Assembly: GCA_019096195.1 (NCBI GenBank)
Contig: JAGTXK010000025.1
Span: forward strand, 62,001-126,000
DNA from: Boletus sp. NGJ
Lineage: Eukaryota > Basidiomycota > Agaricomycetes > Boletales > Boletaceae
Direction of reading: 5' to 3'
DNA length: 64,000 bases
In this document: in pieces, positions 6,859-64,000 of the stretch
Numbering within the stretch: the stretch's first letter is position 1
How the letters are laid out: every line of letters begins with the position of its first letter
The notes under the pieces: model-generated
Databases searched by the model: none
What the model saw: the letters and a program-made list of their open reading frames with translations, nothing else
What the model was told of the DNA's origin: nothing
Made by a program: the position numbers and the translations under genes

Positions 6859-9297
6859 ATGTCTACCACGTCTTCCGATACTACTCAACCGACCTTGTTT
6901 GGCGATGAATCCGTCCCGGCCACGGATGTGACTTTTGATATCTCTCTTCCTGCGATTTCCGATCCTACCGAGTCTGGTGAGACGATGGGCTGTGCCCACT
7001 TTGCCGCCCTGCTCGCCGCTCCACAGGCAGGTGACGGCGTTCTGAAGAAGTACAAGACCGTTGTTGCCTGGCATGCACGTAGAATCCAGGATACCTCCCC
7101 CCCTGCAAAGCGACGAAAGGTGTGCCTTCATCCCTTCAAGCTTCAATCTTGGCCATGCTTGCCTAAATATATGGCACATGCGCGTCTCTGACCTATCGCC
7201 GCCCTAGGTTGCTGCGCCCACCTGTGACATCTGCAACGCAACCTTGTCACGCCCATTTGTGTGTCTATCCTGTTCCTTCGCGGGCTGCTGGCCGGGCGGA
7301 CACATCACCAGCCACCTCCATGAGACGGGCCACTCATTTTGTGCGTCCATCTCATTCTCCATTCCGGTCTTGCTCCAATGCTCACGCTGCCTCCGACCAT
7401 GCCTGGCGGCCACATCCCTCTCATCATCTACCCAGGTGTGGACACCCGATCTGGCTCGGTGTTTTGCGCAGATTGCGATGATTTCGTGTATGATACTGCT
7501 ATCGACGCAGTGTATCTATCGACCGTCATTTTGATCGAGGAGCAAATGACACAGTTTCAAGGTAGGTATTGGACGATCTCCCGGCTCGGTGATTTCATGT
7601 CGGTGCAGTGTCGAAAAGGCCAAGAGAACCTTATCAACCTTGGATGCCGAGTGAGAGTGAGTCTGCCGTGCTCAAAGAGGTGACTCTCCTCCCTTGCCAA
7701 AGTAGGGTTCCCTTGTGCTTCTCGTGTAGCTGATGCTCAGCACAACCCAAGGTCGTCGTGGTCTGCTCAACCTCGGCCAGACCTGTTTCCTCAACGTCAT
7801 CCTCCAATGTTTCATCCACAATCCATTATTACGAAACTATTTTCCTCAGTGATAGACACAACACGAGGCTATGCAAACATACGGACTGTACCTGTTGTGA
7901 GATGGACAACCTGTTTTCAGAAGTAAGTACCCTTACGACTACGATCTCAACCAATCTCCAGTGGCTCGTCCAAAATCCCATCGTGTGAAACAGGATCTGG
8001 GATCTAACCGCCACTCAGGTATACTCTTCGAATCAGACACCTTTCGGACCTACGTCGTTCCTCACCACGACTTGGAAAGTCTCTGCGGAAATGTCAGGTT
8101 ACTCTCAACAGGACGCCCACGAGTTTTTCATTACCGCACTCAACCAGATTCATGGGACATGCCGCGGGTCGACGAATATCTCGTGTAACTGTATCATCCA
8201 CCAGACATTTGCAGGACAATTGCAAAGCGATGTGACGTGTGAGCGGTGTGGGAATATGACCAGCACGGTCGATCCCATGTTGGATATCAGTTTGGAACTG
8301 AGGGGAAAGGGTGGGGAGGTGAGTGGAGTGGAGAACACGTTGGCGGGGTGTTTGAGGAGGTACATGGATGGGTTTGCCTGTTCCAAGAATTCGCTGATCG
8401 GATACCGTCTGCTAGGTTTCACCAAGCCCGAAAAGCTCGGCACGAAAGAGTATAGTTGCAGTAAATGCACGAAAGCGCACGAAGCGGTCAAGCGTCTGAG
8501 TATACGCAAGTTGCCGCCCGTGCTCAGCTTTCAGTTCAAGGTGTGCTCACTTGTTCGGTGAGATGTGTCGAGTCTAGTTGGTCGTTAACGTCCACGAATA
8601 TCACAGCGCTTCGAGCATAAGACGACCTCGAAAGGGGTCCCGCAAAAGATTGACACACCGGTCAGGTTTCCTGCATCGCTCAATATGGCACCATACACGA
8701 CGCTCGCGATGAACCACTTGGGCAAAGACGGAGACGGATCGACGTGGGGTCCTGCGGCTTTTTCCTTTGTGCTTGTTGACGATCGCGACGCGCATATAGG
8801 TACCCGGGACCAGATGCGATGTACGAGTATGACCTGTTTGCGGTGATCAACCACGAAGGTCAGATGGACAATGGACACTATACCAATTTCGCGCGGTTTC
8901 GGGACGAGGTGTGTTCGTTTTGAGGGGAGTAGGTATTTCCTGGCTGGTAGGCTGATGACAATCATACACAGTGGTATCGCTTCGACGATGACAGGTGCGC
9001 GTTTGGTTGAAGGGGCGACGGAACGACTGACGATGACACGATTCGCTTTTGCTATCTTTTTTTTGACACGTTCACTACAGAGTGACACTCTCCAACTTGG
9101 GTGCATGCCTCAACTCGAACGCGTACATGTGCTTCTACGTCAAGCGCCACCTCGACTACAAGCCTTACATGAAGCCAACATATCGCGTGACGAGAGACAA
9201 CGACATCGTACGCGAACAAGAACAGGAAAAGCTCAAGGAGATGGCGAGGATGAAAGAGGTGGATGATGCGCTCATGGCGACCATCGCCGGGGACTGA
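6859..9297 (+). CDS. ubp8: SAGA-type ubiquitin-specific protease (Ubp8 family), one-base frameshift
   Basis: Thiol deubiquitinase; family members remove ubiquitin from histone H2B as part of SAGA. Ten exons: 6859-7119, 7208-7340, 7436-7561, 7609-7679, 7730-7922, 8019-8540, 8607-8743, 8800-8908, 8972-8994, 9081-9297; about 596 aa. Order: ZnF-UBP finger at roughly residues 45-150 (CDICN, C-x2-C, GHITSHLHETGH, FCADC), then the USP fold. The Cys box is GQTCFLNVILQ (Cys about 216), followed by GYSQQDAHEFF, zinc-ribbon CxxC pairs, the His box DNGHYTNF (His about 507), and FDDD. Exon 5 is one nucleotide too long: after RNY near 7840-7848 (run TATTTTCC) the frame shifts and resumes as FLSDRH. All other exons fit exactly, so this is either a sequencing error in the T run or a recent mutation. 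An ATG at 6775 is in frame, but 6859 fits better. Its 3' end is duplicated inverted at the window's right edge. Confidence 0.9.
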
Positions 9298-9648
9298 GTG
9301 GAGAGGTGTTCATAGATAAGGTTGGGTAGACGAAAAAAGGGAAACATTCTTCAGTATACGTTCGACCTGTTATCTAATAGCCAATCTTTGTACTTGTGGC
9401 AAACCTGGATCCATACGTGTCGTAGCTCGAGTTCCCGAGTTGTGTATATATGTAACAAGCGGGGGACAAGAGATGGTTAAATAAACGGAAGTAGCGAGGG
9501 AAGGAGAAAGCGTGAGTTTAACGACATAGAAAGGACAATGTGAAAAGGGAAAGTTCTGTATGTATATTCCAAACGGGGTCCGCATTTGGATCATTAAAGA
9601 GTTGCATATCAGGGATGGAATGGGATGTGGAGGGGAAGGGAGAGTAAT

Positions 9649-10472
9649 TTAGGGGATGATATCGTAAAGCTCACCATCCCGTATTCGGATTTCTACTACC
9701 TCAACCTCATAATCTGTCATGGAAGACGTGGTGGAAGACCAGGAATTGGAGACGAAAGCTCTAGAACCAGGAGGAGAGGTAGACGCGACGTCTGTTAGGA
9801 AAATACCACCAAATATTTAATCCAAATCGGCCAAATACAACACGAAAGAAATGGACTGACATCGATCCTTGATATAAGGAGGGACGAAAAGATCCTATTT
9901 AAAAAGTAATACACCATTGAGCGGCTACGTCTCTCGAGAGGCAAACGAGAAAGCAAAATACAAACCTGGTTCCATACAAAGCCCTGGCTCTTCTGAATGG
10001 TCAAGATAGGGCGGAGGGTGTGAGTCGGGCGACGGTCGCGCTTGCGATGGCGCCTCTTGGTCGCTTCCGGCTCCGGATCAACTGCGCGCTGTTTTCCTTT
10101 GATGTCCTTTTTGAACTGAGCAGCGTTCTTCTCGTCGTTGGAAGCGGATGGATGAGTGTGGGTGTGGCGATCGGCTCCATCGATCTCCATGTTCTGGACG
10201 TGCGTGTCGTCCTGTGGGTCAGATGCAGTTACGGCAGGGACAGTGCGGTCGAGAGTGTGCTCATTGGAGGTGTGGTAATCCTCTGCGTCCTCTGAGCAGG
10301 AGTCGTCTTCAGACTGGCTATCAGAATAGTCTTCGTCTTCGTCGTCGTCGTCGTAGGGGATCTGCTCGTAGCAGGCCCACGTGGGGGGCGATGCAGCACG
10401 CCCGATGGTGCGCCGTCTGAAGTAGGAGGAGTAGGGCGAGTTCAGGGTGGATATAGCTGCTGGGCTAGTCAT
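9649..10472 (-). CDS. Acidic/basic low-complexity protein, unknown
   Basis: No family recognised. Three exons 10472-9966, 9894-9861, 9791-9649 (GT-AG introns of 71 and 69 nt) give 227 aa. The protein has an acidic, Ser/Asp/Glu-rich stretch around residues 45-70 (DDDDEDEDYSDSQSEDD), a basic stretch around 140-155 (RRHRKRDRRP), and a short conserved-looking C-terminal segment (DYEVEVVEIRIRDGELYDII). This composition suggests a nuclear or disordered protein, but that is inference. It is divergent from thg1, with only 156 bp between the two ATGs, and convergent with ubp8. A small piece of its last exon also occurs in the inverted copy near 63550-63600. Confidence 0.65.
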
Positions 10473-10628
10473 TTGGAAGACGAGCAAGGGTGGTGTGGAA
10501 GGTGTTTCTGCTGGAGTGGAGTTGCGTCCGTGAAGTTGCGGTGTGAGTTACGACTCACAGTGATCATTGTGAAAAGTGACTGCGTTGGCCACAGTTGCCT
10601 TTTTCGGTTCGTCACCCTTTTCTTGCTC
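10473..10628. promoter_or_regulatory. Short bidirectional promoter interval
   Basis: 156 bp between the start codons of two divergently read genes must hold both 5' UTRs and core promoters. No TATA box is obvious. A version of the thg1-proximal part survives in the right-hand inverted copy (about 63500-63550). Confidence 0.45.
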
Positions 10629-11728
10629 ATGGCCAACTCAAGGTATGCCTACGTCCGCAACTTTGAACTCCCAGACCCTCTCCTCCCAGGCTGTTTCTTG
10701 GTCTGTCGTCTGGATGGACACTCCTTTCATCGGTACGTGAACACACTCGGAATGGAACGCGACATCTCGACATCCGATTCGATGCAGCTTCTCCGAAGAA
10801 CATGCATTCACGAAACCAAACGACGAGCGTGCTCTACAGCTAATGGACCACGCCGCCAAGGATCTCATGACCAAGTTCAAAGACATCGTCCTCGGCTTTG
10901 GTGAATCCGACGAATTCAGGCAAGCACCTCGCTGCCCATCCCTCTATACTACCTAATCACTCCCAACCCAACTAGCTTTCTCCTCCGAAAATCCACCGAT
11001 CTGTATAATCGCAGACACGCAAAAATATTATCCACCCTCACGTCCTATTTCACGTCATGTTATGTATTCCACTGGCTTCGATATTTCCCAGATACGCCGT
11101 TGCGCTATCCGCCCTCATTTGATGGCCGGGTCGTCTTACATCCCGATGAGCGTGCGATACGTGATTACTTTGCTTGGCGACAAGCTGATAGTGCGTCCAT
11201 CTCCATATTTCCGTTCTCGTCGGTGCTGAGCTGAGCTGAGCGTCAGCATCGCAGCGCACATAAATAACCTCTACAACACTGTATTTTGGGCTCTCGTTCA
11301 ACAGGCCGGACTGACTACCGCCGAGGCGCACACCACTCTGAGGGTGATGTCTACCGTGCGTTCGGGTACGAGTCTGGGCTGACTTGGCTTTAGGGCACTG
11401 TCTCTGCACAAAAGCACGAGATGTTGTTTCAGCGATTCAAAATCAACTATAATGATATTGCGGCACGATTTAGGAAAGGAAGCGTGGTGGTTCGTGAGAA
11501 GGTGAGGTCGAATATGTCGTGGTGTCTCAGTCTAGATCTGTAATGACGCTCATCGTATGCCAGGCCGGCGAATCCAAGGACACACACGATACCGGCAGTC
11601 TAACTAAACCCGTCGGAATGCAAGCAAACGATAAATACGAAAAGCCGAAGATGACGATAGAAGTCTTGCACTGCGATATCGTTGGCGACGGATTTTGGGA
11701 TGCACGGCCATACTTGCTTAGTTGTTAG
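10629..11728 (+). CDS. thg1: tRNA(His) guanylyltransferase Thg1
   Basis: Adds the essential G-1 to the 5' end of tRNA-His by 3'-5' nucleotide addition. Six exons: 10629-10732, 10788-10919, 10976-11190, 11255-11343, 11394-11501, 11564-11728; 270 aa, the usual family length. The metal-binding residues fall at the expected positions: Asp29 in [11 protein letters not shown], and Asp76/Glu77 in GESDEF. The segments [19 protein letters not shown] and LNRFKINY-like [19 protein letters not shown] follow as in the family. Intron 2 starts with GC (TTCAG|GCAAGC) and ends in TAG; using it restores [14 protein letters not shown], so it is a genuine GC-AG intron. Housekeeping gene, expected to be essential. 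A decayed inverted copy lies at 62290-63550. The 3' flank runs straight into a CpG-poor repeat island. Confidence 0.95.
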
Positions 11729-12499
11729 TGTCTGTTCTACATCTCTTGAAATGGATCATACATATATTATCGATATTGCATGTTGGTAGCTCGATTTACA
11801 ATCATGAGTTTATGATCCGAAATACACCGCCATCGACAATATTTGGGAGATCTGACAGACGATGGACGTTTATTTGCACTTTTTTTTGGATAGATTCGTC
11901 ATAGCAAGGGGTTGCAAGCCGAACCTCGGCGAGGGGGCGACAAGATGGGATTACATCAGTAAAATTACATGCATCTTAATCTGGCATATTTTAGCTAATT
12001 CTGCTTGTCAAATTACAAAATATATTCAATACCATGATAATGCATCCCAGAACATCAGAAACATCAACTACAATCAAATTATTCTATTATTCAACAAAAT
12101 GAAGCTTAGAATTTGTCTCTATGTCAGATTTGGAAATGTTGTGCAAGTCAATAAGCTGGATATAGTAAGACAGATTGAGATGCATGTAATTTTGCTGATG
12201 ACTGGTGGCTGCTTACACTTAAGATACCATGTATCACTTGAATGCAACACAAACATGTTCCAAGCTCCCTATAGATGCTATCTCTGCATATCCATAGGGG
12301 ATTCTCAGTCCCATACACTTCTGCTGATTTCACATTGATGCATGCATTGATAAACATGCTGTCCATAAATTCAAGCTTCCTTGCCAGTGACATTTGTTGC
12401 ATACACCATCAGCAAATTAACACATTCAAGTTACTTACTTCACACTTATGGCTTGTTGTCCACTTATCCAAGTGCTTGAAGTTTGCTAACTCATAAATA

Positions 12500-13330
12500 A
12501 ATCTATGAAAGGAACTTGCTAAGGAATACAAAAAGGAAGCCTAAACCCAATATCTCAAGCATCACCAACTAAGGCAATATCAAGACTAAGGAAAGTACAT
12601 GATGGTACACTACTGGCCACTTATATACTTCTAATGGCTGAAATGACCAAACCCTATCTGGGGTTTAGCACAATCTCTGTGGCTTGCCCAGTAGAGTATG
12701 GGAAAGACCAAGAGGACAAGACTGAGGTCCTCTGGCAGCTCTTGGACCTTTATATACTGTCTAGGGGTTTACACTTGTGTACACTAGATTGAACAATATG
12801 CTATGCTATATGCATGATTGGTGAAGCTAATACGAGGATAACATGTATATCAGTATAGCCATGGAAGGGAAGGGAAGAATACAGTAGCATAAGGAGTACA
12901 TGAGGTGAGCAAGTCATAGATAGGGGCGTGAGGTGAGCATGAGGTAATATAGATCTAGGATGAGTCAAAGGGAATGGCATGAGGATAGCATGAGGTTTGT
13001 GGGTCTAGATTTAGGATGGACTTGAGCATTTATGAGGATTGGGTTGTAAGGGCTAAAGATAGGGGCTAGATGTGAAAGTCATTGTATAAAATTGGGAAAA
13101 ATGGTTCTGTAACAATAGTGGTGCACAGACTGTGCTATGCTATAACATACTAGGGTACTAGGTATGGCATTACAGAAATGAGAGATGTACAATAGAATGA
13201 GATGTGTATGATATACATATGTAAGTGAAATGATAGTCTAGATCATTGTAAGGACATGGCTACATTGTGATGTATCAGAAGGATCAATAGATTAGAATGG
13301 AGAGATGAAATAGTGTAAAGGAATGCATGA
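12500..13330 (+). repeat. Repeat copy A, inverted partner at 26590-27000
   Basis: Matches the reverse complement of 26590-27000, for example CAACTAAGGCAATATCAAGA, and the stretch around ACAATAGAATGAGATGTGTA (about 13190-13210). This copy carries about 470 extra bases (roughly 12635-13110) absent from the partner. No termini or target duplication could be defined, so the class is unknown. Confidence 0.55.
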
Positions 13331-14273
13331 GAGGTATGGCATAGAAGATCTATCTAATATGTATGACAGCTTTGAGCTAGCATCCATGCCAGTGAGCCTC
13401 TGGGAGGAGGCTTGGAGATGAGCTGATTGACAAGGGCATAGTTGAAGGGCAGGCATGTTTTTTGAACTCCAACTAAGTTATTTGAATTAGTGACCAATAA
13501 GGGCAGCTGAATTTCCATAGTGAATACCACTATTGATTAATCAGACAAGAGGTATTTCTTTTCCAATTGCATACCTTCTCATCTATAAAATCAATTGATT
13601 ATAAATATATAAAACTAATCTCACTGGCAATAAGACTTATTGGTCAAAGGTCGATTAGATTGCCAGATCTCCAAGTTATTGATCATTGAGTTGGGCTGAT
13701 TAGTAAACCTCCACTCACGTTTCAAATAAACCTTTATAGCCACAGCCAAGACATGATTTTGAGAAACCACTACTGGCCCAATCTGAGGGAGAAGTGCCAG
13801 TGGTTGAGTTGAAAGATTGTGTAATATATTCATATCTTGAAGTTCCACTGGCAAATCAGTGAAAACTTGGGCTGAATGCTAAAAAATATAGTATTTGAGA
13901 TATCTGTAATAGAGCATATTACCCACAGATGCAGGAAGGTCACTAACAGCTTGAAATCCCTCAAGCTGGTTATTAATAAAAGCTTGTAGTAGCTACAAAT
14001 GATCAAGTTTTATTGACAGTAGTGATTTAAACATAATTACTCTAAATAGACTTACATTGTCCATATTGGTAGAGCTAGTAGTGAAGGGATTGAAATTTTC
14101 TTCATAAGGAGTGAAGGGAAACATGATGGCAGAAGAAGAGATGTGTTATCTATTATCATTGATTCAATTCAATGAAATTTGGTTGATTATATGTTTTTCT
14201 CATGTAAGTCTGAGTCATGTTGAATTCAAAATCTACTACTCCACTGCCATCAACTTGACCAACTGACCCCTGG

Positions 14274-14650
14274 ACTATGCTATTACCCACATCCTCAAGA
14301 CAACTGTGCAACAACCAGATCAAGAATGTGGTTCAGCAATCTCATATGTGCATATCACTACTTCATATCTATAATCTCAGCTCACTCTGTTTTCCTCTAA
14401 TTGTGCTACCACCTATATCAATTACCTCAAAAAGATCATGCAACAACCAGATTACAAGGTTTAGCAATCCATAAGTGCATATTAGCACATCACATCTACA
14501 ATCTCAGCTCACCCTGTTTCCCCCAGACTGTGCTACTACCCACATCAAGTACCTTGAGACAACCACACAACAACTCAACTGAGAACAAGATTCAGAAATC
14601 CCACACATGCATATCACCACATCATACCTATGATCTCAGCTCACACTTCC
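14274..14650 (+). repeat. Minisatellite, three units of about 125 bp
   Basis: Three adjacent degenerate units starting near 14274, 14401 and 14527. Each contains TGCTA-(C/T)-(T/C)ACC, then CAACAACCAGAT or a variant, then a TGCATAT motif, and ends in ATCTCAGCTCA. The open frames across it are by-products of the repeat. Confidence 0.7.
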
Positions 14651-14942
14651 CCTGACCATTAACCTGCATTAAACTTGTTTCATGCAGTCAGAAGCTACCA
14701 TTTGAATGGAATTAATTCTGCAGCAGTTAAAATCTTTCAATATTCTAGAGCCTAATAACCTTTAGTATGACCTAGCACCTCTGCAATTTTCAGAATATTC
14801 CATCAAGAAACTCAGGGGAAATTAATGTTTTTCTACAATATATAGCTTCATACTGTCTACAAGTACATAGCTAATGGAATTGTAAATACTATGTATATAG
14901 TTAAGTGCCAGTGAGAGAATGTGACCATATGACCATATCCTA

Positions 14943-16515
14943 CAGTGACTTCCAAAATTGAGTCAATGTTTTGAGATTTTGGAGTATTAGCTATATAACT
15001 CAGGAACATGAACAATTAGAGCAAAAGTATAAGTGGGTACCTAAATGTGCCTGCCCCTGGCTATCTGTCACAAAACTATTTATGTAAGTTGAGTATGTAT
15101 CCATGGAGATATCATCAATTTAATTCAATATGTCATTGACTCAATTGTGTAACTACCTGTCAGATCTATTAAGGGTGGACAGCTGTCATATGTAACCCTT
15201 GATGGAAGTATGATAGATGGTTAGCATAGTTACTATATATTAGTAATCACTTCAACTGACACTATTTAAAGGCTAGTTTAATCTCTTATGCCTTTTAAAT
15301 TCACTATGCATTTTACTCTCTCTTCTCAAAAAGAAAACATCCTTTCTCTGGCCTCTAATGGTCATTCTACTTGTTATATTGCCTCCAAACTAGGTGTCAG
15401 CCAGTCTACTGTCTCCAGGATCTTCTTCCCAATAGATCTATACCTCTTTCTGGCTATCCCTCCAAGCTTTCAGCCACTTCTCAACATGCTATTATTACTC
15501 AAATCACCATAGGCAGAGCTGCCAATGCTGTCTAGGCTACCCATCATATCAATTCCATCATTCCTAGTCCAGTCTCCTCATAAACAGTGAGAAGAGTTCT
15601 TAAAAAATATTCATTCAAGGCTATAACAAAGAAGAAAAAGCCACTTTTTGCTGTAAGAAATAAGAAGCATTTAGCCTTTGCTCTAAAGTATCAGGAATGG
15701 ACTATTGAGGACTGAAAGAGGGTTATTTGATCAGATGGAAAGGAATGGGTATGGAAACAGGCAGGTGAGGGCCTTATTAACAAAGAGATTCAGGGAACAG
15801 TGAAGTTTGGAGGAGGAAATATCATGGTATGGGTTGGGAAGGTGTTGGGCACATTGCAGAGGTTGAGGGGAGGATGGATGCCAATCAATATGTGGACATT
15901 TTGAAGGACAACTTGCTTCCCAGCTTGGAGGAATCTGGAATTTTTCTAGAGGATGTGATCTTTCAACAGGATAATGGCTTCAAACATACCTCCAAAACAG
16001 CCAAAACATGGATGGAGGACAATGATATTAACCTCCTGGATTGGCCTCCACAATCTCCAGATCTTAATCCTATTGAACACCTTTGGCATCACATCAAAAA
16101 GGAGCTTGCCATGTATTCAAATCATATCAAAGGAGTATGGGAGATTTGGAATAGAGTGGCAGAAGTATGGAACAACATGGATCCAGAGGTGTGTCAGAAT
16201 TTGATTGAAAGCATGCCTAGGAGGATCCAAGCAGTGATCAAGGCCAAAGGAGATCATACAAAGTACTAGAATTGGCTGATTCTATGAATTTGATATACAG
16301 TATGGTTACAAAATTGAGTCAATGACTTACCAATTTGAATTGACTATATCTCTATGGATACTTATTCAAATTATATAAGTTGTTTTTTGCAACATAGCCA
16401 GGAGCAGGCACATTTGGGCACCCACTTATACTTTGGCTCTATTTGTTCATGTTCCTGAGTTATATAGCTAATACTCCAAAATCTCAAAACATTGACTCAA
16501 TTTTGGAAGTGACTG
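14943..16515 (+). mobile_element. Tc1/mariner DNA transposon, degenerate
   Basis: Flanked by TA at 14941-14942 and 16516-16517, the target duplication of this superfamily. Terminal inverted repeats begin CAGTGACTTCCAAAATTGAG on the left; the right end read inward is the same with one difference. Similarity between the arms continues for about 235 bp with gaps, long for a Tc1 element. Total length is 1,573 bp. One transposase gene, decayed, runs left to right. The element lies in the CpG-erased island and is itself nearly CpG-free. Confidence 0.9.
15288..16269 (+). pseudogene. Tc1-like DD34E transposase, broken
   Basis: The N-terminal piece (15288-15512) shows a helix-turn-helix with ASKLGVSQSTVSRI. 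The C-terminal piece (15829-16269) keeps FQQDN as the second Asp and PIEHLW as the Glu, separated by exactly 34 residues, with DWPPQSPDLNPIEHLW, the family signature. Between them the frame is broken: stops occur where Trp codons would be expected (TGG to TGA, for example before SDGKEW), and residues around the first catalytic Asp appear deleted. It cannot encode an active enzyme. Confidence 0.88.
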
Positions 16516-17514
16516 TATGTGTGAGGAATTGACAGTGACAAGGGTGGAGGATCCGGTGCTAGTGTAGATGGTGTCCGACATGAAGCACTTGTGGGAGGTA
16601 GGGCCACATGCCTCATGTGGTAGGCATTATTAGTGAGCTGAAATATGTGGGGTGGGAGTGGGCCACATTTTCAGCAATGTCCTAATAGTCTGTGGCATGT
16701 TTTTAAAGGATCAACTCACCATTTGAAGTGACATGTTTGTGGAGGTTGGCAGTGACAAGGGCCCATGATGGTCATCACATTGCCTGTGGTCATTGAATAC
16801 TGGTAGGAGACTGAATCTTAAGCAAAGTGAGTGTGAATTCCAGATGAACAATGATGTTGGATCATACCAGTTGCACCATGGCTGGAAGAGATGAGCTGCA
16901 TAGCTACCTATTCTTATCTTGTTGGAGTCATGCTCTAGTAACTATAGGCAAAAATTAGTGCATGCATTTTAGAACTTGTGAACTTGACTCATGCTTATTT
17001 ATGACACCACTCAATGACCAGGAAATGTGTGCACAGTATGTATAGTGCCCATGAAGGGGATCAGAATTTGTCTAAAATATCCCCTTGAAGTCTAATCAAG
17101 TTGTCATTGCTTTTGCCTGTGGGTCCAACTGTGATGCTCGAGTTGCTATTGGATGTGTTAGAGTGCAGATTTGAGTCTAGGGAGAACATGTCCTAAAATG
17201 TGTATGCTATGAAATAGAGTAAGGTGAGGAAGTAAGATGACAAGAAGGCCCATCTGTAGAGAAAATTCAGTATGGTGATGGGCCTTTGAGCCACTGTTGT
17301 AGGCTCATGCAACAATCTTCAGACTCTCCCAAGTGGTTGGGGATCATGCATCAACTTGCTGCAGAAGGACAAGTGTGGCAAACATGACAAAAGGGTGGAA
17401 CTTTGTCCTATGTACTTGAAGCATAGTAATGTTACAATAAAAAAGTGCATAGTATATTACACCATGACAATTGACTAGCTATTGTGTAACTGTATCATCA
17501 TAAATGTTACGCTG

Positions 17515-18490
17515 GGTAACAATATAACATGTTCCTGTATAATCAACCCTGTTTAATTATAGGACTAGCAGGACTTGAGGGAAAAATACCTCCAGAGGCC
17601 CAATGATTCCTCTGACTGGGGACCAACTGCTAGCTTTATGTAGAGTGTCCTGGTTGCCTCTATGACCAATGGTGAAGTCTTGGATTTACCTACAGTGGCA
17701 CAATCCTCCGAGAAGGAAGGCCAGACTGGATGCGGAGGCCAGAAACTAGATCTCTGGGCTTACATGGCCTAGTGCCGGTGGCAGAGTCCCGGGCTTGCGG
17801 GGTCAGTGGCAGAGTCCTGACCAATACAGGCCAACCTCTGTTGGCGTTTGTCAGTGGCGGAGTCCCAGGCTTGCATGGACCAACCTCTGTTGGTCGTTGG
17901 AGTTGCCAAAGCTTTAGAAGCGGGTTCAGACAGCAACGAGGCCACACAAGTGCGTGGTGATGAGGAAGACGATCACGAGCACAAGGGACGATCACCTCCA
18001 GAGCGGGAGCGAGGCTTCTGAGGTGAAGTGGAACTGGTAGCGGGAGAAGCTGGTAGATTACATGGGAAGGAGTGTAGATCTAGGTTAGAGTTACATGAAG
18101 GGCCAGTGTCCCTTTATATAGGCCATGCCCATATAGGGCAGGCTTTGTATCATATATGGTAATTGTAAGTCGCAGACTAAAGATTACCATAAAGGATCTA
18201 GGCATCAGTCAAATGGAGATTTGGAATACTAGGCTGTGTGTGAGAGAACACAGCCAAGGAGGCAATGTCTATGATCGAATCAGAGAAAGATGAAAGGCAT
18301 GTATCAATGAAATAGAAAGGTGGTGTCCAAACCAAATGGATAACTTCCTAGAAAGGGAGTTCCTAATGGGGCAATGCCTGAGTTGGTGTCACAGAGGAAT
18401 CCCTGGTCCAAGTTGAAGAACAAGTCGTTCCATAGTCCTATGGGGGGTGAAGGGAGAGGAAAAGATGTACCCCCTTCTGTAACTGTAACA
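17515..18490 (-). mobile_element. Solo LTR, family TGTTA...TAACA (copy 1)
   Basis: A 976-bp unit bounded by TGTTA and TAACA and flanked by a perfect 5-bp target duplication ATAAA (17510-17514 and 18491-18495). Its U3-like half matches, in reverse orientation, the units at 20869 and 24187. No internal retrotransposon sequence is attached, so it is a fossil left by LTR-LTR recombination. The middle (about 17690-18060) still has many CG dinucleotides, unlike its surroundings and sister copies, suggesting it is the youngest of the three. Open frames in it are not genes. Confidence 0.85.
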
Positions 18491-18592
18491 ATAAATGTGC
18501 ATGTTCTTTACAAGGCCTTGGCAAATATTAACAATAAATGTTTCAGTGTATTTAAACCCAGCACCATGATCAACAATCTGAAGTATGTGTAC

Positions 18593-19346
18593 TCAGCAAC
18601 CATCACTCATGTGTTCAAATTTCATCTCCTTGAAGCACTTGACAGCATCATGGTAGTGATGTGGATTTTTACCATCAAGTAGGAGGCAGCCCATACCATT
18701 CCAGCAGGCTAAACGCCAATCATTGGCACACTTTCTCAGATTTTGGCAATCATCTACATGAAACATAATGGTTGGCTCCTGCACAGTGATGAGCTGGCAA
18801 TGATGATTAAGAATAGCCTTGGAGTAAACCAATGAGACAAAGATGTCATGGCCCATTATTGACCTATGATTGCCATAGATCTCGGTGAGCGGCATTGCAA
18901 GAAGCTCCATGTGAACAATTTCTTGAGTTTGTGTGCATAGCTTAGCTAGATAAGCTCAGCCATGTGATAGTCATATTGTGCTACTCAGATTAAATTGACA
19001 AGAAACTCCTGCATTTGTTGGCAGTGATACTTGTCTGCAAACCACAGAAAATTTTGAAGTTCTTGATGGGTATAGGGTGACGTGCTTGTGCATGTACTAT
19101 AGAATTACCAATAGATATTCTAACTTCACATTTAATCAAGTTAGGCTACTTACTGGGAATAAATATGGTCAAGAAATAGGTCAAATATCTCTGAATGTTC
19201 ACCCTCCAGAATGATTGGGTATGCATCACTTTGTTCTTCTCTGGGCCAATGTTGACAGCAGAATGAGTGGATGGATCACAGGTTTCAAACATATCTTTAA
19301 AGAGGTCTGAGTGGGATGAGAGTATATCATCGTGCAGTTTGTACAA
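18593..19346 (-). pseudogene. Relic BTB/POZ-domain gene
   Basis: The minus-strand frame at 19346-19146 begins YKLHDDILSSHSDLFKDMF, which matches the start of the BTB/POZ fold common in Agaricomycete proteins (hydrophobic pattern Y-x-L-H...HS-x-x-F-x-D-M-F). A downstream minus-strand frame (18910-18593) has the Trp/Cys pattern (DWRLACWNG) that could be the C-terminal part. Intervening frames contain stops, the DNA is CpG-poor, and no continuous gene model exists. Confidence 0.5.
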
Positions 19347-20868
19347 TATGTGTTCAACCTGGTGAAATAGAGTTGTACTGAGTTAATGTCATGGTCTCAG
19401 GTGAAAGCACAAACATAGAAGATATGTGTTTCCTTTGGATAATAGTACTTCTTATGATGTACAATTCAAAGAGGCTGCATATCTGTCATTGGGTGTACAG
19501 TCATGATGGTATGACATGAGGAAAGATTACAGTATGGTGTGAATGCAGAGACAGTTTGTTGACATAAATGTAACATGGCCCATGTGATGTTGGCCTATTC
19601 TGAATCACTTCCAAGTTGCTTCCCACTATAGTAATTTTGTTTTCCTTCTCTCCAAGCTACATCTGAGTCAGGCCCATTGATGATCAATCATTGGTTGATG
19701 GCAGCCAGTACAATAGCTCAAACATTACCACTGCTTCCACAAACTACTGAGAACTCACCCAACATTCTTAGGGCACACATCACTCTAAGTGATATCTATC
19801 ACCACACTGTCCAGTTGTTCAATCAAGAGAAGGCAGACATTTTTCAGCTTGTGTTCCATCTAAACACCATTAGAAACAATGCTGTTCCACTCCTTCAAGC
19901 AATTGAATGCTCTACATTGGGGCTAAACAGTTGGCTCACACAAGTTACAATTTAGCTTGGTCACCTGTTCCATGCCCTCTGAAATTATCAAGATAGTGTA
20001 CAAAACCAGTAAGTCGTTAGTCCACCATCACAAATAATTAATGACACGTTCAATGGACCCTAATGTCATAATCCTGCAGCCTATTGAGGACATTCATACA
20101 GGGCAATGAGGCTATTCAAAGAAATATATTGACTCGGCTTTCCTTCATGAAGTGACTTCGAATTCCCACCACATCAAGTTGACAGAGCTTGCTAATGTTT
20201 TGGAGTACATCACAACACACTTTGCTTGTATATGAAATGACATGGAATTGAGCAGAAATACTCATTATTGAGCAGTAGTGAACTTGATCAGTTGGTTGCT
20301 TATTTCAAGGCCAAATGGCCAGAATCAGGCCTGCATTACAAAATGGGTTTCTTGTGACAATGTGGTTACCATGTACAATATTCTAGGGTATCCTATTCTT
20401 TGCACCAGTTGGACAGTGTGGGCCAGATACTGCATAATTGGAAGATAAAAAAACAGTGCAAGTACTATATAAAGCACCTGGATGCCCTTTGGCACATTGA
20501 CAGGCATCACAAACTGATCCAATGGGGTATCATCATTCACAGAATGATCGATGTATTCTGTTGGATGGTGTGTAATTATTCTTACTTTATATTTTAAGCT
20601 AGCTAAACATTGTCTGTTAGATTACTGCACTCCACACAAGTGACAACAACCATTCGACAACCGTTCTAGACTTATTTAAGTATACAATTGCCATGTATGG
20701 AATGCCATCAATGGTAAGGGGTGGTTGAGATGGTGAAAACATTAATATAGCAACATATATGGTGATAAATAGAGGTGCTCAACATGCTTCTTTTATGTGG
20801 GGCTTGTGAATATTGCTATTGAATACATCTCAGCTACTAATTATTGTTGATCAGTTCAACACACATAA

Positions 20869-21763: not shown

Positions 21764-21879
21764 CACAACTCATGTATTGAACGCATGTGGATTGAGATTG
21801 AAATGCAATTTGCATAATGCTGGCATGCATTTTTCACTTAACTTGAAAGATGCCTCATGCTTGATCCTCGCAATCCAGC

Positions 21880-22460
21880 CCATCTGTGGCTGTTATATAC
21901 ACTTTTCCTTAACATGGTCTCAACTTGAGTGGAACTACCATCTGATATGGGACCAGACACCAATAACTGGAGTCCACAAATACATGGTAATTAAATTTGC
22001 CTGTTATTTTTTTTTCTCATTACTTTAAGGATCTTCAGTTTCTGGGACAGGCACATTATGGTGTATATAATGATGGCTATCAAAACACATTGCCTAATCT
22101 TATTAATCAATTCTATGGCACACATGGGGCATGTGTTCAGCAGAGAGAGCACCAGACAGGAGCAGAGCATCCAGCAGACAAAAATGATGATAATGATGGC
22201 ACTGGCAATGGTGATGGTGATGCGCCTAATGGCCACAACTATTCAGCAGAGATCTCAATTAATTACTGGCAGCAGCAACACATTTACCATGAAGCAATTC
22301 ATTTCCAACACATAGAAGCCCATTCAATTGTTCTGACAATGAGGCTGCATTTTTCACAACATTGCACAAAGTTAGCATACTTGACATCATTCTGGAAGGG
22401 TTTGAACTTATGGCAACTAAAGGAGACAGTCTGGATCCCATGTTCAAAATAATCTCTGTT
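21880..22460 (+). mobile_element. Fragment resembling an integrase-core element protein
   Basis: Plus-strand translation around 22030-22300 includes FLGQAHYGVYNDGY and, further on, INYWQQQHIYHEAIHF, which recall the C-terminal part of integrase-core proteins abundant in Agaricomycete repeats. It is an isolated, broken fragment in CpG-poor DNA; element class and ends are unknown. The resemblance is from memory and unverified. Confidence 0.3.
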
Positions 22461-27000: not shown

Positions 27001-27099
27001 TGAGATTTCTATCAATCTTAGCACATCAGTAAAAATTGGACCAACTGTCCAGTGCTGAACAGTACTGGACAGCAACATAGTGCTCATAGTGAGGGTCCA

Positions 27100-48601: not shown

Positions 48602-50673
48602 ATGCCTGGCTGGACTTTGGTGGATACCCATCCGGCGCAAGGGCGCACTTTCCAACGACCTCTGGACACGTCCGAACTCGGTTTTCTCTGGGATGGCCTC
48701 TTCAACGGGACCGCTGACAATATACAGCACTTTGAGCTCCGTCTTTTGAATGGTTCTCAGGACGTACATCTGTTTTCAGTGGCCAACATCGTGCGGGCGT
48801 GGTTGTCTACAAAGAGGCGTTTCCCGCTGGTGGGGGCCACCGTACGAGGTTCTAGCGCTCTACTCAGCTTGAGAGAAGCTACTGACTGGAAAGCAGAAGG
48901 TGGGGATGGTCGTAATGGCGACAACAGCACAGGATTCGCGTCGCAGCCCCACTTTGTTGTCCGGGAACACGACCTTTTTGACCTTCGCCCGCGCGAGATT
49001 GTCTTTGGGTCGGTGACCGGTGCAGAGGAGGCACAGCGGCGGATGGCTGCGATCTTGGATGGTCCGCGTCCGCTTTCGGAGGAGTTGCTGGTGCAGCTGT
49101 ATGTCCTTCGCGAGACTGACTCTGACAGGACGGACGTGCTCCACTTGGTACTGTTGATGGCGCATTGCGTGACAGACGGGGTAGCGAACAACACGTTCGT
49201 GCGGTGTTTGTTGGATACGCTCGCAAGGGGTGGAGGGTCACATTCGGAGCCTGCTCAGATCCCGTTGGAGGACAGATTGGCGATGGCCATCCCTTTGGTG
49301 GAGCTCGAACCTATCCATGTGCGCTCGCTCAGTCCGGCAAGACGACGGTGGCGAAGGGCGGTCGGGATCGTGATATTCCAGTTGAGGATGGCAAAGAAGC
49401 AGGTGGGTGTTGTCTTTTCATACAAGTAGACAGCCGAGATCGTTTTCGACGGGAGCGTTGACGGGTCTATGGTCAATATCGTAGGGTGGGCATACCCTTC
49501 CTTGTCGCATCACGCGCTCGACACCGCACGTCCCCGCACGATCTGGCTGCGTCTCCACCTCGCTCACGCACACGCAACGCGCTGTCGTGATTGCCAATTG
49601 TCGTCTGCACGACTTCACGTTTGGAAACGCCTACCTCGCACTCGCTCAAGTGGCGATGACCCGGGTGCTTTACCGACGGTACCTGCGCGGTGAGATTTCC
49701 GAGGAGGAATGGGCGTATCGAAAGAGACAACCACATTATAGTGGGGGTCCGCTCAACTTGCGTCCGCATCTTGACAAGTCGTGGTTCGAGAGGGGCGGTG
49801 GAGGCGAGTTTATGTTGTCCATCAGTGTTTTCTTTTACCAGCTCCCGTTCATGACGCTGGGTGCAGTGGCGGAACGAGGACAGCATCGCGAACACTCGGA
49901 CCCGGAACGCGTTCTGTCGGATGGCGCACCGCCGTTCTCGGATCTCCTCACGTTTGACCGGTTCTTGCATCGCGCGAGGTTGGTCAAGAAGCAAGCGACG
50001 GCGTTTTTCAGCCATCCCTTGTTTTTCGAGATCATACATGCGATGAGTCTGTTTCGCGTTCAGCATACGCGGCACGTTGCTCTCCAGTGGATGAAACAGG
50101 TCGAGACTGGCAATGGTGATGGCACGCATGGAAACTCGAACGAGGACGATATTCTGTCGGTCATGGACATACCTGTGGTCTGGGCTCACGGAGGGTCGAG
50201 CACTGGTGATGTGCGTCTGGTATCCCTTCTGCGATCACCCATTCTCACCGCTGGTATGTCGTTAGGTAGACTTGATCTCCCCGTCTGAGTACCCCTTACC
50301 ACCCACCCACCCGCTCTCACCCTACTCTTCTGTTCCACACCCCGTTAAAGCAGGCTATCTTGAGCGTCCCTCACCTTCGTCATCTGTCGCTGAAGCGAAC
50401 GCGAGCCCAAAGATCGCGGTCGAATGCACCAGGGTACTCCTCCACACGCGTCCTTTTGAGCTTTACCTCGGGGCGGCTAGCTCGCGTGGACGGTTGAATA
50501 TGTATGTTTTTTATGACGGGAACGTGTTTGAAGAATGGGTCGTAAAGGAGTGGTTGGACGAAGTTAGGGGGGCGGTGTTGTGGTACCTCGGTCGGACGCA
50601 TCGGACTCAGGCTCGGCAGAGTGGTGGGGATGAACTAGCTGGACTTGGCGAAGGCGTACAAGCTAAATTGTGA
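48602..50673 (+). CDS. Condensation-domain (HxxxD) acyltransferase-like protein, intact copy
   Basis: Three exons 48602-49402, 49485-50253, 50354-50673 (introns 82 and 100 nt) give 629 aa. The active-site motif HxxxD is at His188-Asp192 (MAHCVTDG), as in the CoA-dependent acyltransferase/NRPS condensation fold. Exon 1 ends in RRAVGIVIFQLRMAKKQ and exon 2 opens GGHTLPCR. A helix with THTQRAVVIANCRLHDFTFG matches the part of the fold that follows the linker between the lobes, and the C-terminal lobe has RGRLNMYVFYDGNVF. Substrates are unknown; relatives include alcohol acetyltransferases and secondary-metabolism enzymes, but no biosynthetic cluster surrounds it. The nearby non-ATG extension to 48566 is ignored. 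An inverted, truncated copy is at 30191-31670. Confidence 0.82.
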
Positions 50674-50740
50674 ATTAGAACGTGCTAGTTGCGTGGTACA
50701 GTAGTATACTGTGTACCACTGTGGCGTAGTCATGTTAGTC
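49128..50740. repeat. Inverted duplication arm (partner 30075-31670)
   Basis: About 1.6 kb nearly identical to the reverse complement of 30075-31670. The left breakpoint lies inside exon 1 of the acyltransferase at about 49128; the right end is just past its stop codon, where a third partial copy (60528-60640) also matches. Confidence 0.88.
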
Positions 50741-59764: not shown

Positions 59765-60497
59765 ACGAGAGATATCCAGCAGGACAAACTATAGCGAAGT
59801 ATGGAGATCAGTGGCCGATAGATCTCGCGTGGATGACGCGTGCGATCAGACGGATCGACAGAGTGGACAAGACGATGGTGCCAGAGGTGTTGCCAACTCC
59901 CCTCGAAACGACCGCCGAGGGATGGGAAACAACGTCTGAGAGCATCAGGTGCCTGAGCTCGAGCGTTTGGGCCTGAATGAGTGCATGCGTTGTGGCGAGA
60001 GCCGCCATGGAAACTCGGTGGCAAAACTAGGACGGTTTGAATAGGTAGTTCCTGGTGGCGAAAACAGTTTAATTTCTACCTTTGCGCAGAATATAGCGAG
60101 CTGCGCGGATTGTAAACTTGTCGTGAGTAGTCTCGCGGTGTAGACACGACAAACATTCACAGAATGCGCTTGGAAACGACGGAATGTTTCGCAGACGTTG
60201 ACTGTTTACCTGGTCGTCGCAACGAGATCACATAGCTGGGAAAGACACGAGGCAGTGTGCGAACACACCAGCGACACCACATTGAGAAGAAGGAAATGTT
60301 TTTATAGAACAAATTTGCGTACCATGAGTAAACCGGAACACCTTATTCTTCCACGCTTGAAGCTTCAAAGCCAACAACTGCGTACCATTGGTGAGGATGT
60401 CGTCGACGAACACCGGTGGGTAGTAGCTCGGAGGTGTGATTGAGTAATGCTGACAATTCAGGAAGAACAAACAATAGTACTTGACCCCGGTCACTCA
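59765..60497 (+). repeat. Direct repeat, copy 2 (short, transposon-free)
   Basis: Second copy of the 50755-55935 unit with an internal deletion of about 880 bp. It preserves the empty site of the pogo-like transposon (CCACATTGAGAAGAAGGAAA, about 60279-60298). It ends at GACCCCGGTC, just where the WD40 coding sequence of copy 1 continues. Confidence 0.8.
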
Positions 60498-60527
60498 TGA
60501 GAGGGACGAGTGAAGCCAGTCTGAGTG

Positions 60528-60793
60528 GGATGAACTAGCTGGACTTGGCGAAGGCGTACCAGCTAAATTGTGAATCAGAACGTGCTAGTTGCGTGGTACA
60601 GTGGTATACTGCGTACCGCTCTGTGGCGTAGCGAGGCACGAGTGAAGCCAGTCTAAGTGTAGGTAAGCAGGCGTACCCGTACCGCGACTTTCCCTGTGAC
60701 GCCCATCTCACCCTCAAACTTTCCGGGTTGTCACACTTCACGTTTCGCGCGTTACGTCCTGGCCAGGCTTGTTCCGTCTCCTTTCTGATGGAA
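60528..60793. repeat. Second copy of the acyltransferase-flank/F-box chimera
   Basis: Reverse complement of 29905-30190: the acyltransferase 3' end (GATGAACTAGCTGGACTTGG...) joined to a piece of F-box coding sequence with the same internal gap. From 60728 on it reads through into the larger F-box pseudogene. Confidence 0.78.
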
Positions 60794-61800
60794 ACCGCCA
60801 CCACGACGCAATCTCTCCCTCAGAGTCAGACTCTGTCTCCATGCATGCTTGAATCCCTCGACGCGGAGAACTTCATGTTGACCGGAGATCTTGGCAACAT
60901 ACGCGCGTGCGCGACGCAGCATTTTCCAAGGCTGTCATCGTTGACGTTGAGGAGGCACAGCAACGACGCGCGGTCCTTCCGAATCATGGTTGATTTCAGC
61001 GCATTTCGGGGCGATGTTTGGCGTGATTCCTAATTTGACGACCCTCGTACTCTATGGGCAACTTCTTCGTTTTCGTACCGATCCGGTTGGCGGTCCGCAA
61101 GGCCAACAGGATACTCACGGAGGTGGCGTTTGGGGTGGGGGTGGCATCGGCTCCGCTGCCAACGCTGCGACGATCACCCTCCCACATCTCCACACCCTCG
61201 TGCTCCACCCGGGGGTGTTGAAACCGCGCATTCATGCACCCGCACTTTGGCATTTCGAATTCGTCTTTCCGGATTCAAAGCTCTCGGGGCAGAGTACTGT
61301 CCAGCAACTGTTTGTGGATGTGTCCTTCTCCTCTTCGTTGTCGTCATTGTCATCCTTTTCGTATCCATCCTCATGTTATGCCTCTTATCCATCATCCTTG
61401 TGTGCAACAGCAGTACACATGAACAAATGATGACCACATTTCCTGTACATTGAAATGGTAGTCCTGCACAATGCTCCGAACGCCAGGGCATTCATACATT
61501 CGTTTCGATCAATGACACAAGCAATGTTGGATTTTTCCCATTTGTCTTGTGTGCCGGCGTAACATCGGCCGTTGGCGTAGAATCAGTGGGAACAACAGAA
61601 TCAAGGTCAAGGTCAGGAATGGTGGCAGGAACAGGAATAGGATTAGACACAGCTCCATGCAACTTTGCCTGTTTCAAATGCTGGCAATGACTACGAGCAT
61701 GGATGCATTGTAACATGCTCATTGTTGAAGGCTCACTCGACTGCTCAGACATCTGTTTTTTTGTGCAGTGTACAATTCATTGTACACTAGTAAGCTAAAG
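60728..61800 (+). pseudogene. 5'-truncated F-box gene copy, CpG-decayed at its 3' half
   Basis: Matches the F-box gene from its residue ~225 (TFRALRPGQACSVSFLMETA) to close to the stop (IVEGSLDCSDI at about 61720-61752). It has a frameshift at about 61010, a deletion in the central region (after VLKPR) and several stops after 61430. The N-terminal coiled coil and F-box are absent. CG dinucleotides are intact up to about 61300 and then progressively converted to TG/CA relative to the source gene. Confidence 0.85.
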
Positions 61801-61937
61801 TACAACACTGAGATAAGTTGTAAAACAGGGCTGTTGTAGGGCATCAAAGTCCAAGATAGGAGAACACAGTCATTTCCTGCATAATTTACCAGATTAAATC
61901 AAATACCTCACCAACTAGAATGAACTCACCAGTGGCT

Positions 61938-62279
61938 CTACTCGGCTTGGAGAGCATGCACAACTGCAAGCACCTGCTGCTGCTGCTTTCTGACCCCCTG
62001 CTGGATCTGTATGACCCCCTGCTGCAGCTGTATGAGCCCCTGCTGCAGCTGTATGAGTCCCTGCTGGACCTGTATGAGCCCCTGCTGCAGCTGTATGAAC
62101 CCCTCCTGGATCTGTGTCAATTGGTCCTGAAGCTGTTGTTGAAAACAATGCTCTTGCAAGATGATTTCATTGAAATGTATGTCCATTTCATTCAGTAGTT
62201 GTTGTCCATCTGTGATCACAGGGATGTGATGGACAAGCGGCAGTTGCTCTGCAGCAACAATGTCAGGTTGTTGTGTCAT
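61938..62279 (-). CDS. 113-aa heptad-repeat coiled-coil ORF
   Basis: An uninterrupted ATG-to-stop frame. The N-terminal half (MTQQPDIVAAEQLPLVHHIP) is ordinary; from residue ~50 it consists of seven near-identical heptads of the form G-(L/V/F)-I-Q-(L/V/I)-Q-Q, giving a hydrophobic a/d pattern typical of a coiled coil. The heptads come from a 21-bp tandem repeat. It lies in CpG-poor repeat DNA, so it may be an ORF of a non-autonomous element, not a host gene; its open frame amid decayed sequence is notable. No homologue named. Confidence 0.45.
   Translation of the reverse strand: MTQQPDIVAAEQLPLVHHIPVITDGQQLLNEMDIHFNEIILQEHCFQQQLQDQLTQIQEGFIQLQQGLIQVQQGLIQLQQGLIQLQQGVIQIQQGVRKQQQQVLAVVHALQAE
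61982..62125 (-). repeat. 21-bp coding minisatellite
   Basis: About seven copies of CTGCTGCAGCTGTATGAGCC-like 21-mers (plus-strand reading); the period is a multiple of three and sets the heptad repeat of the overlapping ORF. Confidence 0.8.
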
Positions 62280-62289
62280 GATGGTGGGT

Positions 62290-63550
62290 GATGAATAGCC
62301 AATTTAAACATCCATTGAATATTGGTCGATAGGGGTGTCTTGCGGATCATAAATGCTTGATTGTAAATTGAGCTACCAGGATGTAATATCGATAATATAG
62401 GCATGATCTATGCTTAAGAGATGTAGAACAGACACTAACGACCAAGCACGTATGGTCGTGCATCCCAAAATCCGTTGCCAATGACATCGCAGTGCAAGAT
62501 TTCTATCTTCGGCTTTTCGTATTTATCGCTTGCTTGCATTCTGACGGGTTCAGTTAAACCGCCGGTACCGTGTGTCCTTGGATTCGCCTGCCTGGCAAAT
62601 GATGAGCGTCATTACAGACTGAGACACCACGACGTATTCGACCTCACCTTCTCACGAACCACCACATTTCCTTTCCTGAATCGCGCCAGGGTATCATTAT
62701 AGTTGATCTTGAATTGCTGAAACAATATCTCATGCTTTTGTGCAGAGACAGTGCCCTAAAGCCAACTCAGCCCAGACTCATACATGAACGCACGGTAGAC
62801 ATCACCCTCAGAGTGGTGTGCGCTTCGGTGGTAGTCAGCCCGCCAGTGTTGTGGAGGTTATTGATGTGCGCTGCGATGCTGACGCTCAGCTCGGCTCAGC
62901 ACCGACGAGAACGGAAATATGGAGAGGGACGCACTATCAGCTTGTCGCCAAGCAAAGCAATCACGTATCGCACGCTCGTCGGGATGTAAGACGACCCGGC
63001 CATCAAATGAGGGCGGATAGCGCAACGGCGTATCTGGGAAATATCGAGGCCAGTGGAATACATAACACGACGTGAAATAGGACGTGATGGTGGATAATAT
63101 TTTTGCGTGTCTGCGATTATACAGATCGGTGGATTTTCGGAGGAGAAAGCTAGTTGGGTTGGGAGTGATTAGGTAGTATGGAGGGATGGGCAGCGAGGTG
63201 CTTGCCTGAATTCTGGATTCGTCGGATTCATCAAAGCAAAGGACGATGTCTTCGAACTTGGTCATGAGATGCTTGGCAGCGTGGTCCATGAGCTGTAGAG
63301 CACGCTCGTCGTTTGGTCTCGTGAATGCATGTTCTTCGGAGACGCTGCATCGAACCGGATGACGAGGTGTCGCATTCTATTTCGAGTGTGTTCACGTACC
63401 GATGAAAGGGGTGTCCACCCAGACGACAGACCAAGAAACAGCCTGGGGGGAGAGGGTCTGGGAGTTCAAAGTTGCGGACGAAGGCGTACTTTGAGGATGA
63501 CGAACCGAAAAAGGCAACTGTGGCCAATACAGTCACTTTTCACAATCATC
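62290..63550 (-). pseudogene. Inverted decayed copy of thg1
   Basis: Reverse complement of about 10545-11880, covering all six exons and the 3' flank. The region around the initiator ATG is deleted (about 20 bp, near 63505), the metal-binding Asp29 is Gly (VCRLGGHPFHR), and the 3' exons contain further changes. It retains the GC donor (TTCAGGCAAGC). Not functional as Thg1. Confidence 0.88.
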
Positions 63551-63660
63551 ACGGTAAACTTTCGTTTCCTGGTTTTCCACCACGTCTTCCATGACAGATT
63601 ATGGGATTCAGAGTTTCTCTCAAGTACAAAGATCGGTTATTAGATAACAGTTCGAACGTA
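63550..63660. repeat. Scraps of the 9649-10472 gene and ubp8 3' flank
   Basis: A roughly 55-bp piece (ACTTTCGTTTCCTGGTTTTC...) matches the last exon of the unknown acidic-protein gene; next to it is the sequence matching 9351-9410 inverted. So the right arm has lost about 280 bp and about 780 bp relative to the left arm. Confidence 0.7.
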
Positions 63661-64000
63661 TACTGAAGCATCTCTCCCCAACCTTAGCTACGAACATCTC
63701 TCCATTCAGTCCCTGGCGATGGTCGCCCACCATGAGCGCACCATCCACCTCTTTCATCTTCGCCATCTCCTTGAGCTTCTCCTGTTCTTGTTCGCGTACA
63801 ATGTCGTTGTCTCTCGTCACGCGATATGTTGGCTTCATGTAGGGCTTGTAGTCGAGGTGGCGCTTGACGTAGAAGCACATGTACGCGTTCGAGTTGAGGC
63901 ACGCACCCAAGTTGGAGAGTGTCACTCTGTAGTGAACGTGTCAAAAAAAAGATGGGGAGAAATAGCAAAAGCGAATCGTGTCATCGTCAGTCGTTCCGTC
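63660..64000 (-). pseudogene. Inverted copy of the ubp8 last exon, continuing past the window
   Basis: Reverse complement of about 9023-9350: end of intron 9 and the last exon (VTLSNLGACLNSNAYMCFYV). The C-terminus is changed (frameshift after MKEVDGALM). Homology reaches the window edge, so the copy may extend further right; without that sequence I cannot say whether the rest of the gene is present. Confidence 0.85.

What the first reader, a model, noticed from the sequence alone, without database searches (positions are those of the whole stretch)
9020..64000. Nested inverted duplications fold the window into a hairpin-like layout
Seen directly: 9.02-11.88 kb matches 62.29-64.0 kb inverted, 30.1-31.7 kb matches 49.1-50.7 kb inverted, and 32.3-33.6 kb matches 60.7-61.8 kb inverted; one copy in each pair is truncated or broken. 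Repeated inversion-duplications of gene-sized pieces around a repeat island suggest template switching, break-induced events, or mis-joined haplotypes of a heterokaryotic fungus.
Basis: partly seen in the sequence, partly recalled or inferred. Interest (0 to 1): 0.75.

Follow-up and report, generated by a model that had tools for sequence, protein, structure and literature searches.

The report
Decayed inverted gene duplicates around transposons
A stretch of a fungal genome holds several genes copied nearby in reverse orientation, with copies truncated or broken and interleaved with transposon islands; it looks like real but largely ordinary genome churning rather than an assembly error or a folded structure.

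Summary
The inverted matches are real and local to one 177-kb contig (C42) of a 32.8-Mb, probably basidiomycete, assembly. Mismatch divergence is 1.2% (acyltransferase-like gene, 30.1-31.7 / 49.1-50.7 kb), 4.6 and 7.4% (USP and Thg1, 7.8-11.8 / 62.3-65.2 kb) and 10.8% (F-box gene). The layout is not one nested hairpin: the acyltransferase and full F-box pairs cross. The right block (60.5-65.2 kb) reads as a compressed mirror of the left order USP, Thg1, CpG-poor slot, F-box', filler, acyltransferase end. That slot is a 17.7-kb CpG-depleted transposon island on the left and about 0.7 kb on the right. The right Thg1, USP and F-box copies look decayed. For four query stretches no second locus was found off C42 except one distant F-box relative, so mis-joined haplotypes are unlikely; no reads were available. 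Best reading: recurrent local inverted segmental duplication by repair or template switching, then decay, perhaps with gene conversion. This is a known kind of process. The neatest detail is the CpG-poor slot in the same place in both copies.

The parts
6775..9412 (+). Left USP gene (zf-UBP and UCH domains; ends approximate); 7831-9412 is the duplicated part
   Evidence: Pfam UCH 1.4e-19, zf-UBP 9.5e-07; inverted match to 65177-63604
10557..11944 (+). Left Thg1 gene (tRNA-His guanylyltransferase) and 3' flank; lacks the lesions seen on the right
   Evidence: Pfam Thg1 exon by exon; PDB Thg1 matches; inverted match to 63555-62318
11944..29638 (.). CpG-depleted transposon-rich island A: no CpG between 11938 and 12833; CpG frequent again from about 29638-29749
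   Evidence: CpG o/e 0.00-0.24 in all nine 2-kb bins from 12001 to 30000; CpG positions; DDE_3 transposase fragment 15781-16266; 20860-21770 has at least 47 matches in the genome, itself included
29898..30082 (.). F-box' remnant plus about 110 bp of filler, shared with the right block
   Evidence: 29898-30187 / 60795-60527 inverted, 11 mismatches in 269; two small deletions relative to the 33.5-kb F-box gene shared with the right copy, read by eye
30083..31671 (-). Truncated inverted copy of the acyltransferase-like gene; the second long frame (267 aa) is still open
   Evidence: 1.2% mismatches to 50729-49120; tblastn 98.5% over 267 aa
31671..32084 (.). Inverted copy of a fragment of a long frame at 83.75-84.15 kb, joined to the acyltransferase copy with 1 bp shared
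   Evidence: 20 mismatches in 399; source frame
32345..34240 (-). F-box gene, open frame of 631 aa
   Evidence: Pfam F-box-like 1.6e-07
48473..50729 (+). Acyltransferase-like gene with its 5' part; frames 48473-49426 and 49485-50285
   Evidence: frames; no Pfam hit over its cut-off; the name rests on an HxxxD motif seen by eye, recalled
59769..60492 (+). Compressed mosaic matching 50771-51091, 51983-52122 and 55761-55936 (around the start of a WD40-repeat frame)
   Evidence: 35 of 40 listed genomic matches of 60300-62330 fall in its first 197 bases (capped list)
60501..60659 (.). 105-bp acyltransferase 3' end fragment between two 27-bp direct repeats (60501-60527 and 60633-60659, 92.6% alike)
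60720..61692 (+). F-box' pseudogene (matches in two frames), CpG lower from about 61.3 to 61.7 kb
61600..62300 (.). CpG-poor slot between F-box' and Thg1', same position as island A; includes a 139-bp minisatellite of 21-bp units and a 121-aa frame with one other genomic relative, at 76.9-77.1 kb
62318..63555 (-). Thg1' pseudogene: start codon absent, a conserved Asp changed, a small frameshifting insertion, a short in-frame deletion; one 172-aa frame remains open
63604..64000 (-). 3' part of the USP' copy, which continues to 65177 beyond the window

Best explanation
The region is a hot spot of local segmental duplication, in this window mostly inverted, in a fungal chromosome. Shown: gene segments of 0.1 to 1.6 kb recur on the same contig at 1 to 11% mismatch divergence (17% for a longer pair outside the window). 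The right block 60.5-65.2 kb has, in mirror order, the same sequence of parts as the left (USP, Thg1, a CpG-poor slot, F-box', filler, acyltransferase end). The Thg1, USP and F-box copies in it look decayed. Inferred: one inverted duplication of a once contiguous segment made the right block, by break repair or replication template switching. Transposon insertion then expanded the CpG-poor slot on the left to 17.7 kb (or deletion shrank it on the right) and most of the left F-box' was lost. The young acyltransferase pair reflects either a later copy or gene conversion. CpG loss in the islands fits cytosine methylation and deamination of transposons better than CpA-directed RIP.
For: Mirror order with the shared F-box'/filler/acyltransferase junction; CpG-poor slot in the same place on both sides; lesions and frame changes on the right; introns kept in Thg1', so copied as DNA; no locus off C42 for the four searched stretches except one C89 F-box relative, Thg1 only on C42; third, older USP-Thg1 remnant (11.4% from the left; 38 mismatches in about 313 from the right); 11 inverted pairs against 1 in one control; CpA+TpG ratio 1.24-1.65 in the nine island bins against 0.93-1.38 in the other 23.
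Against: Divergence is not uniform along the supposed single block: USP 4.6%, Thg1 7.4% (Fisher p 0.002; 0.001 without the end bins). The acyltransferase and 84-kb fragments joined at 31671 differ (1.2% v 5.0%, p 1e-5), so they are not one simple event. The 49-kb gene has more derived changes than the truncated 30-kb copy (6 v 1 with the 103-kb outgroup, p 0.125; 8 v 1 pooled with the 60.5-kb outgroup, p 0.04), against a plain 49-to-30 copy. Thg1' still holds an open 172-aa frame that gives the genome's best Pfam Thg1 match, and its middle is less diverged than its ends, so it may have decayed late. The CpG asymmetry seen in F-box' is absent in Thg1 (17 v 9, p 0.17) and USP (8 v 11, p 0.65). 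One junction only was resolved to the base against both sources. A minisatellite makes up 139 bp of the right CpG-poor slot.
Confidence: 0.72

Rival explanations
1. Assembly artefact: two haplotypes of a dikaryon were joined head to head, so the right block is the other nucleus's allele.
For: Mirror order of several genes; the assembly holds homeodomain matches in two clusters, on C130 and C132, which could be two alleles.
Against: Right genes look decayed and end mid-gene; DNA between the arms is not mirrored; divergences differ between arms; a third remnant exists; no second copy of the 39.9-43.3 kb gene was found in the genome.
Confidence: 0.08
2. The arms are gene fragments captured and moved by transposons (Helitron- or MULE-like), not segmental duplications.
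For: Transposon island next to the arms; 27-bp direct repeats around the 105-bp fragment at 60.5 kb.
Against: The arm queries match C42 only, plus one C89 F-box relative; I saw no copy of that 27-bp repeat at 31671 and BLAST of 29.6-32.4 kb listed none there. Element ends were not searched for.
Confidence: 0.12
3. The 30/49 kb pair is an older duplication kept alike by gene conversion between inverted arms.
For: The filler junction shared with 60.5 kb is 4.1% diverged while 30/49 is 1.2% (p 0.002); the adjoining 84-kb fragment is 5.0% diverged (p 1e-5); more derived changes at 49 kb.
Against: Nine informative sites pooled, all in the 3' part; no conversion boundary seen other than the ends of homology (bins).
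Confidence: 0.4

Closest known systems
Intrachromosomal segmental duplications (low-copy repeats)
   Same: Gene-bearing blocks copied locally as mosaics of pieces; the mosaic nature of human segmental duplications is in the abstract start of PMC2820476 (search listing)
   Different: Arms are short (0.1-1.6 kb) and in a compact fungal genome
MMBIR / template-switch rearrangements (PMC2621351, start of abstract seen in the listing)
   Same: Discontinuous pieces joined in mixed orientation; one junction with 1 bp shared
   Different: Pieces differ in divergence, so several events or later conversion; one junction resolved
Foldback inverted duplication in yeast (PMC10622511, abstract and section list seen)
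   Same: Inverted orientation
   Different: I did not look for a short inverted repeat as primer, and the arms are about 17-55 kb apart rather than joined at a centre
CpG-depleted, presumably methylated transposon islands of basidiomycetes (recalled)
   Same: CpG o/e near 0, transposase fragment and repeats, raised TpG/CpA
   Different: Nothing distinctive except graded CpG loss into F-box'

Membership tests
Segmental duplication | At least 1 kb at 90% or more (common cut-off, recalled) | tested here: met
   By mismatches, gaps left out: acyltransferase 98.8%, USP 95.4%, Thg1 92.6%; F-box 89.2% falls short
Segmental duplication | Low copy, not a transposon family | tested here: met
   Arm queries match C42 only, plus one C89 F-box relative (the tool scores only its best candidates)
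Palindrome / hairpin | Arms in strict mirror order with a common centre | tested here: not met
   Acyltransferase and full F-box pairs cross; pair centres run from about 36.5 to 47 kb (worked out by hand)
Uncollapsed or mis-joined haplotype | Continuous allelic mirror with intact genes | tested here: not met
Uncollapsed or mis-joined haplotype | Half read coverage or no spanning reads | not testable with these tools
   no reads held
MMBIR template switching | Microhomology at junctions | tested here: inconclusive
   1 bp at 31671; other junctions not resolved against both sources
RIP (Neurospora type) | Raised TpA/ApT together with a lowered CpA+TpG ratio (indices recalled) | tested here: not met
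   In the nine island bins (CpA+TpG)/(ApC+GpT) is 1.24-1.65, raised rather than lowered; TpA/ApT is 0.57-0.93, somewhat above the 0.43-0.74 of the other 23 bins

The most novel reading that the evidence does not exclude
The silenced CpG-poor islands themselves provoke the inverted duplications (for example by stalling forks), since a CpG-poor stretch adjoins each of the three USP-Thg1 copies, and CpG-directed mutation spreads from them into new copies (F-box') while sparing a 1.6-kb, 98.8% identical inverted gene pair next door.
Probability: 0.12. Interest if true: 0.5.

Novelty: new member of a known kind. Interest (0 to 1): 0.3.

Why it matters
It is a readable case of how gene copies are made, joined, decayed at their edges and lost beside transposon islands in a fungus. 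If the islands cause the duplications, it would link transposon silencing to local gene duplication.

Tried and rejected
Mating-type locus: the 24 STE3 and 7 Homeobox_KN matches listed lie on other contigs, none on C42. Retroposition: introns are kept in Thg1'. Acyltransferase family: no Pfam hit over its cut-off for either frame and no PDB hit at E up to 10 for the first frame, so the name rests on a motif seen by eye. The 103-kb match of the acyltransferase 3' end lies mostly beyond its second frame, and neither frame matches there by tblastn, so it is a copy of the 3' part only. Whether the 61.6-62.3 kb slot is a piece of island A: BLAST gave nothing better than E 0.87; its frame resembles one at 76.9-77.1 kb only. 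Paper searches listed no paper whose title showed this case; I read none of these beyond what is stated and make no claim that none is in print. CpG loss in basidiomycetes: a listing and two passages of PMC12543289, which did not treat CpG; that comparison is recalled.

Full report
Setting. The window is C42:62001-126000 of an unnamed 32.8-Mb assembly in 141 contigs. Many STE3 receptor matches and homeodomain clusters and intron-split genes suggest a basidiomycete (inference). The contig is 177,383 bases; I fetched it all and compared it with itself.

Observation. The three inverted pairs are real. Their mismatch divergences, gaps left out, are 1.2% (acyltransferase-like, 19 of 1587), 4.6% (USP, 71 of 1543), 7.4% (Thg1, 91 of 1229) and 10.8% (F-box, 105 of 972). 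By one rule, the window has 11 inverted and 5 direct pairs; the single control (C89:300001-364000) has 1 and 1. Six of the 11 inverted and one of the 5 direct pairs lie inside the transposon island. Five overlapping 64-kb stretches of C42 have 3, 9, 10, 9 and 7 inverted and 15, 18, 1, 6 and 4 direct pairs: the whole contig is rich in duplications, and its left part is rich in direct ones.

Layout. The pairs are not one nested hairpin. The acyltransferase pair and the full F-box pair cross. The left partner that shares the right block's F-box/filler junction is a 76-bp remnant at 29898-29973, which with filler and the acyltransferase 3' end (29898-30187) matches 60795-60527 with 11 mismatches in 269 and shares two small deletions against the F-box gene at 33.5 kb (by eye). 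Read in mirror, the right block is USP', Thg1', a CpG-poor stretch, F-box', filler, acyltransferase end: the left order, with island A in the same slot. The left also has 288 and about 810 bp between USP and Thg1 that the right lacks.

Islands. After 11938 the next CpG is at 12833, and CpG becomes frequent again from about 29638-29749. CpG o/e is 0.00-0.24 in the nine 2-kb bins from 12 to 30 kb, against 0.65-1.21 in the other 23; the CpA+TpG ratio is raised (1.24-1.65 v 0.93-1.38) and TpA/ApT is somewhat higher (0.57-0.93 v 0.43-0.74). The island holds a DDE_3 transposase fragment and an element with at least 47 genomic matches, itself included. A second island spans about 65.2-77 kb. On the right, the six overlapping 200-bp bins that start from 61600 to 62100 have o/e 0.00-0.22; 139 bp of this is minisatellite. 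CpG loss extends into F-box' (33 transitions at CpGs kept only on the left against 8 kept only on the right, p 1e-4); Thg1 (17 v 9) and USP (8 v 11) show no significant bias.

Decay. Thg1' lacks its start codon, has a conserved Asp changed (its catalytic role is recalled), a small frameshifting insertion and a short in-frame deletion; introns are kept. Against a long-dead copy: it still has an open 172-aa frame, which gives the genome's best Pfam Thg1 match (1.2e-30; the left gene is split over exons), and its middle is less diverged than its ends. The UCH-bearing USP frame and the F-box frame each match the right copy in two frames. All four Pfam Thg1 matches in the genome are these two loci. 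The 30-kb acyltransferase copy keeps its second frame open (267 aa, 98.5%).

More copies. Both ends of USP-Thg1 (6809-7022 and 11530-11944) sit side by side at 77255-77848, 11.4% diverged from the left in the Thg1 flank. 31671-32084 matches 84153-83754 (5.0%), joined to the acyltransferase copy with 1 bp shared. A 105-bp acyltransferase end at 60.5 kb lies between 27-bp direct repeats. A more distant match of the acyltransferase 3' part (76%) is at 103 kb.

Haplotypes. DNA queries from 9.0-11.9, 30.1-31.7, 32.3-34.3 and 39.9-43.3 kb found matches on C42 only, save one 73% F-box relative on C89. With decay, unequal divergence and arms ending inside genes, a mis-joined second haplotype is unlikely; reads would settle it.

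Order and doubts. The junction shared by 30 and 60.5 kb must be at least as old as the right block. Unequal divergence along the block (p 0.002) and between neighbouring pieces at 31671 (p 1e-5) means several events or gene conversion. The 49-kb gene has 6 derived changes against 1 at 30 kb with the 103-kb match as outgroup (412 sites), and 2 against 0 with the 60.5-kb fragment (103 sites); p is 0.125 for the first and 0.04 pooled. I therefore hold later conversion open for that pair.

Verdict. Real, local, recurrent duplication, inverted in the gene arms of this window, with pseudogene decay around CpG-depleted transposon islands: a known kind of process, of moderate interest.

Noticed in passing
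C42 -18.5 to -2.7 kb, 55.8-58.0 and 111-115 kb in window coordinates: A gene family with four tandem copies left of the window; the 55.9-56.8 kb frame has strong WD40 matches and the others match it or its surroundings at DNA level.
   Followed up: partly
C42 window coordinates -61999..-58206 and -39882..-36088: A 3.8-kb inverted repeat at 99.95% identity, one arm at the very end of the contig; possibly two copies of a transposon.
   Followed up: no
C42 78.2-83.0 and 96.8-101.6 kb in window coordinates: Another inverted pair of about 4.8 kb, 17.4% diverged in its longest part.
   Followed up: no
window 27022-28044 and C42 67079-68142 in window coordinates: Complex AT-rich minisatellites shared in inverted orientation by both CpG-poor islands.
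   Followed up: no
window 61941-62303: A 121-aa coiled-coil-like frame (by eye) with a glutamine-rich 21-bp repeat; one other relative in the genome, at 76.9-77.1 kb on the same contig.
   Followed up: partly
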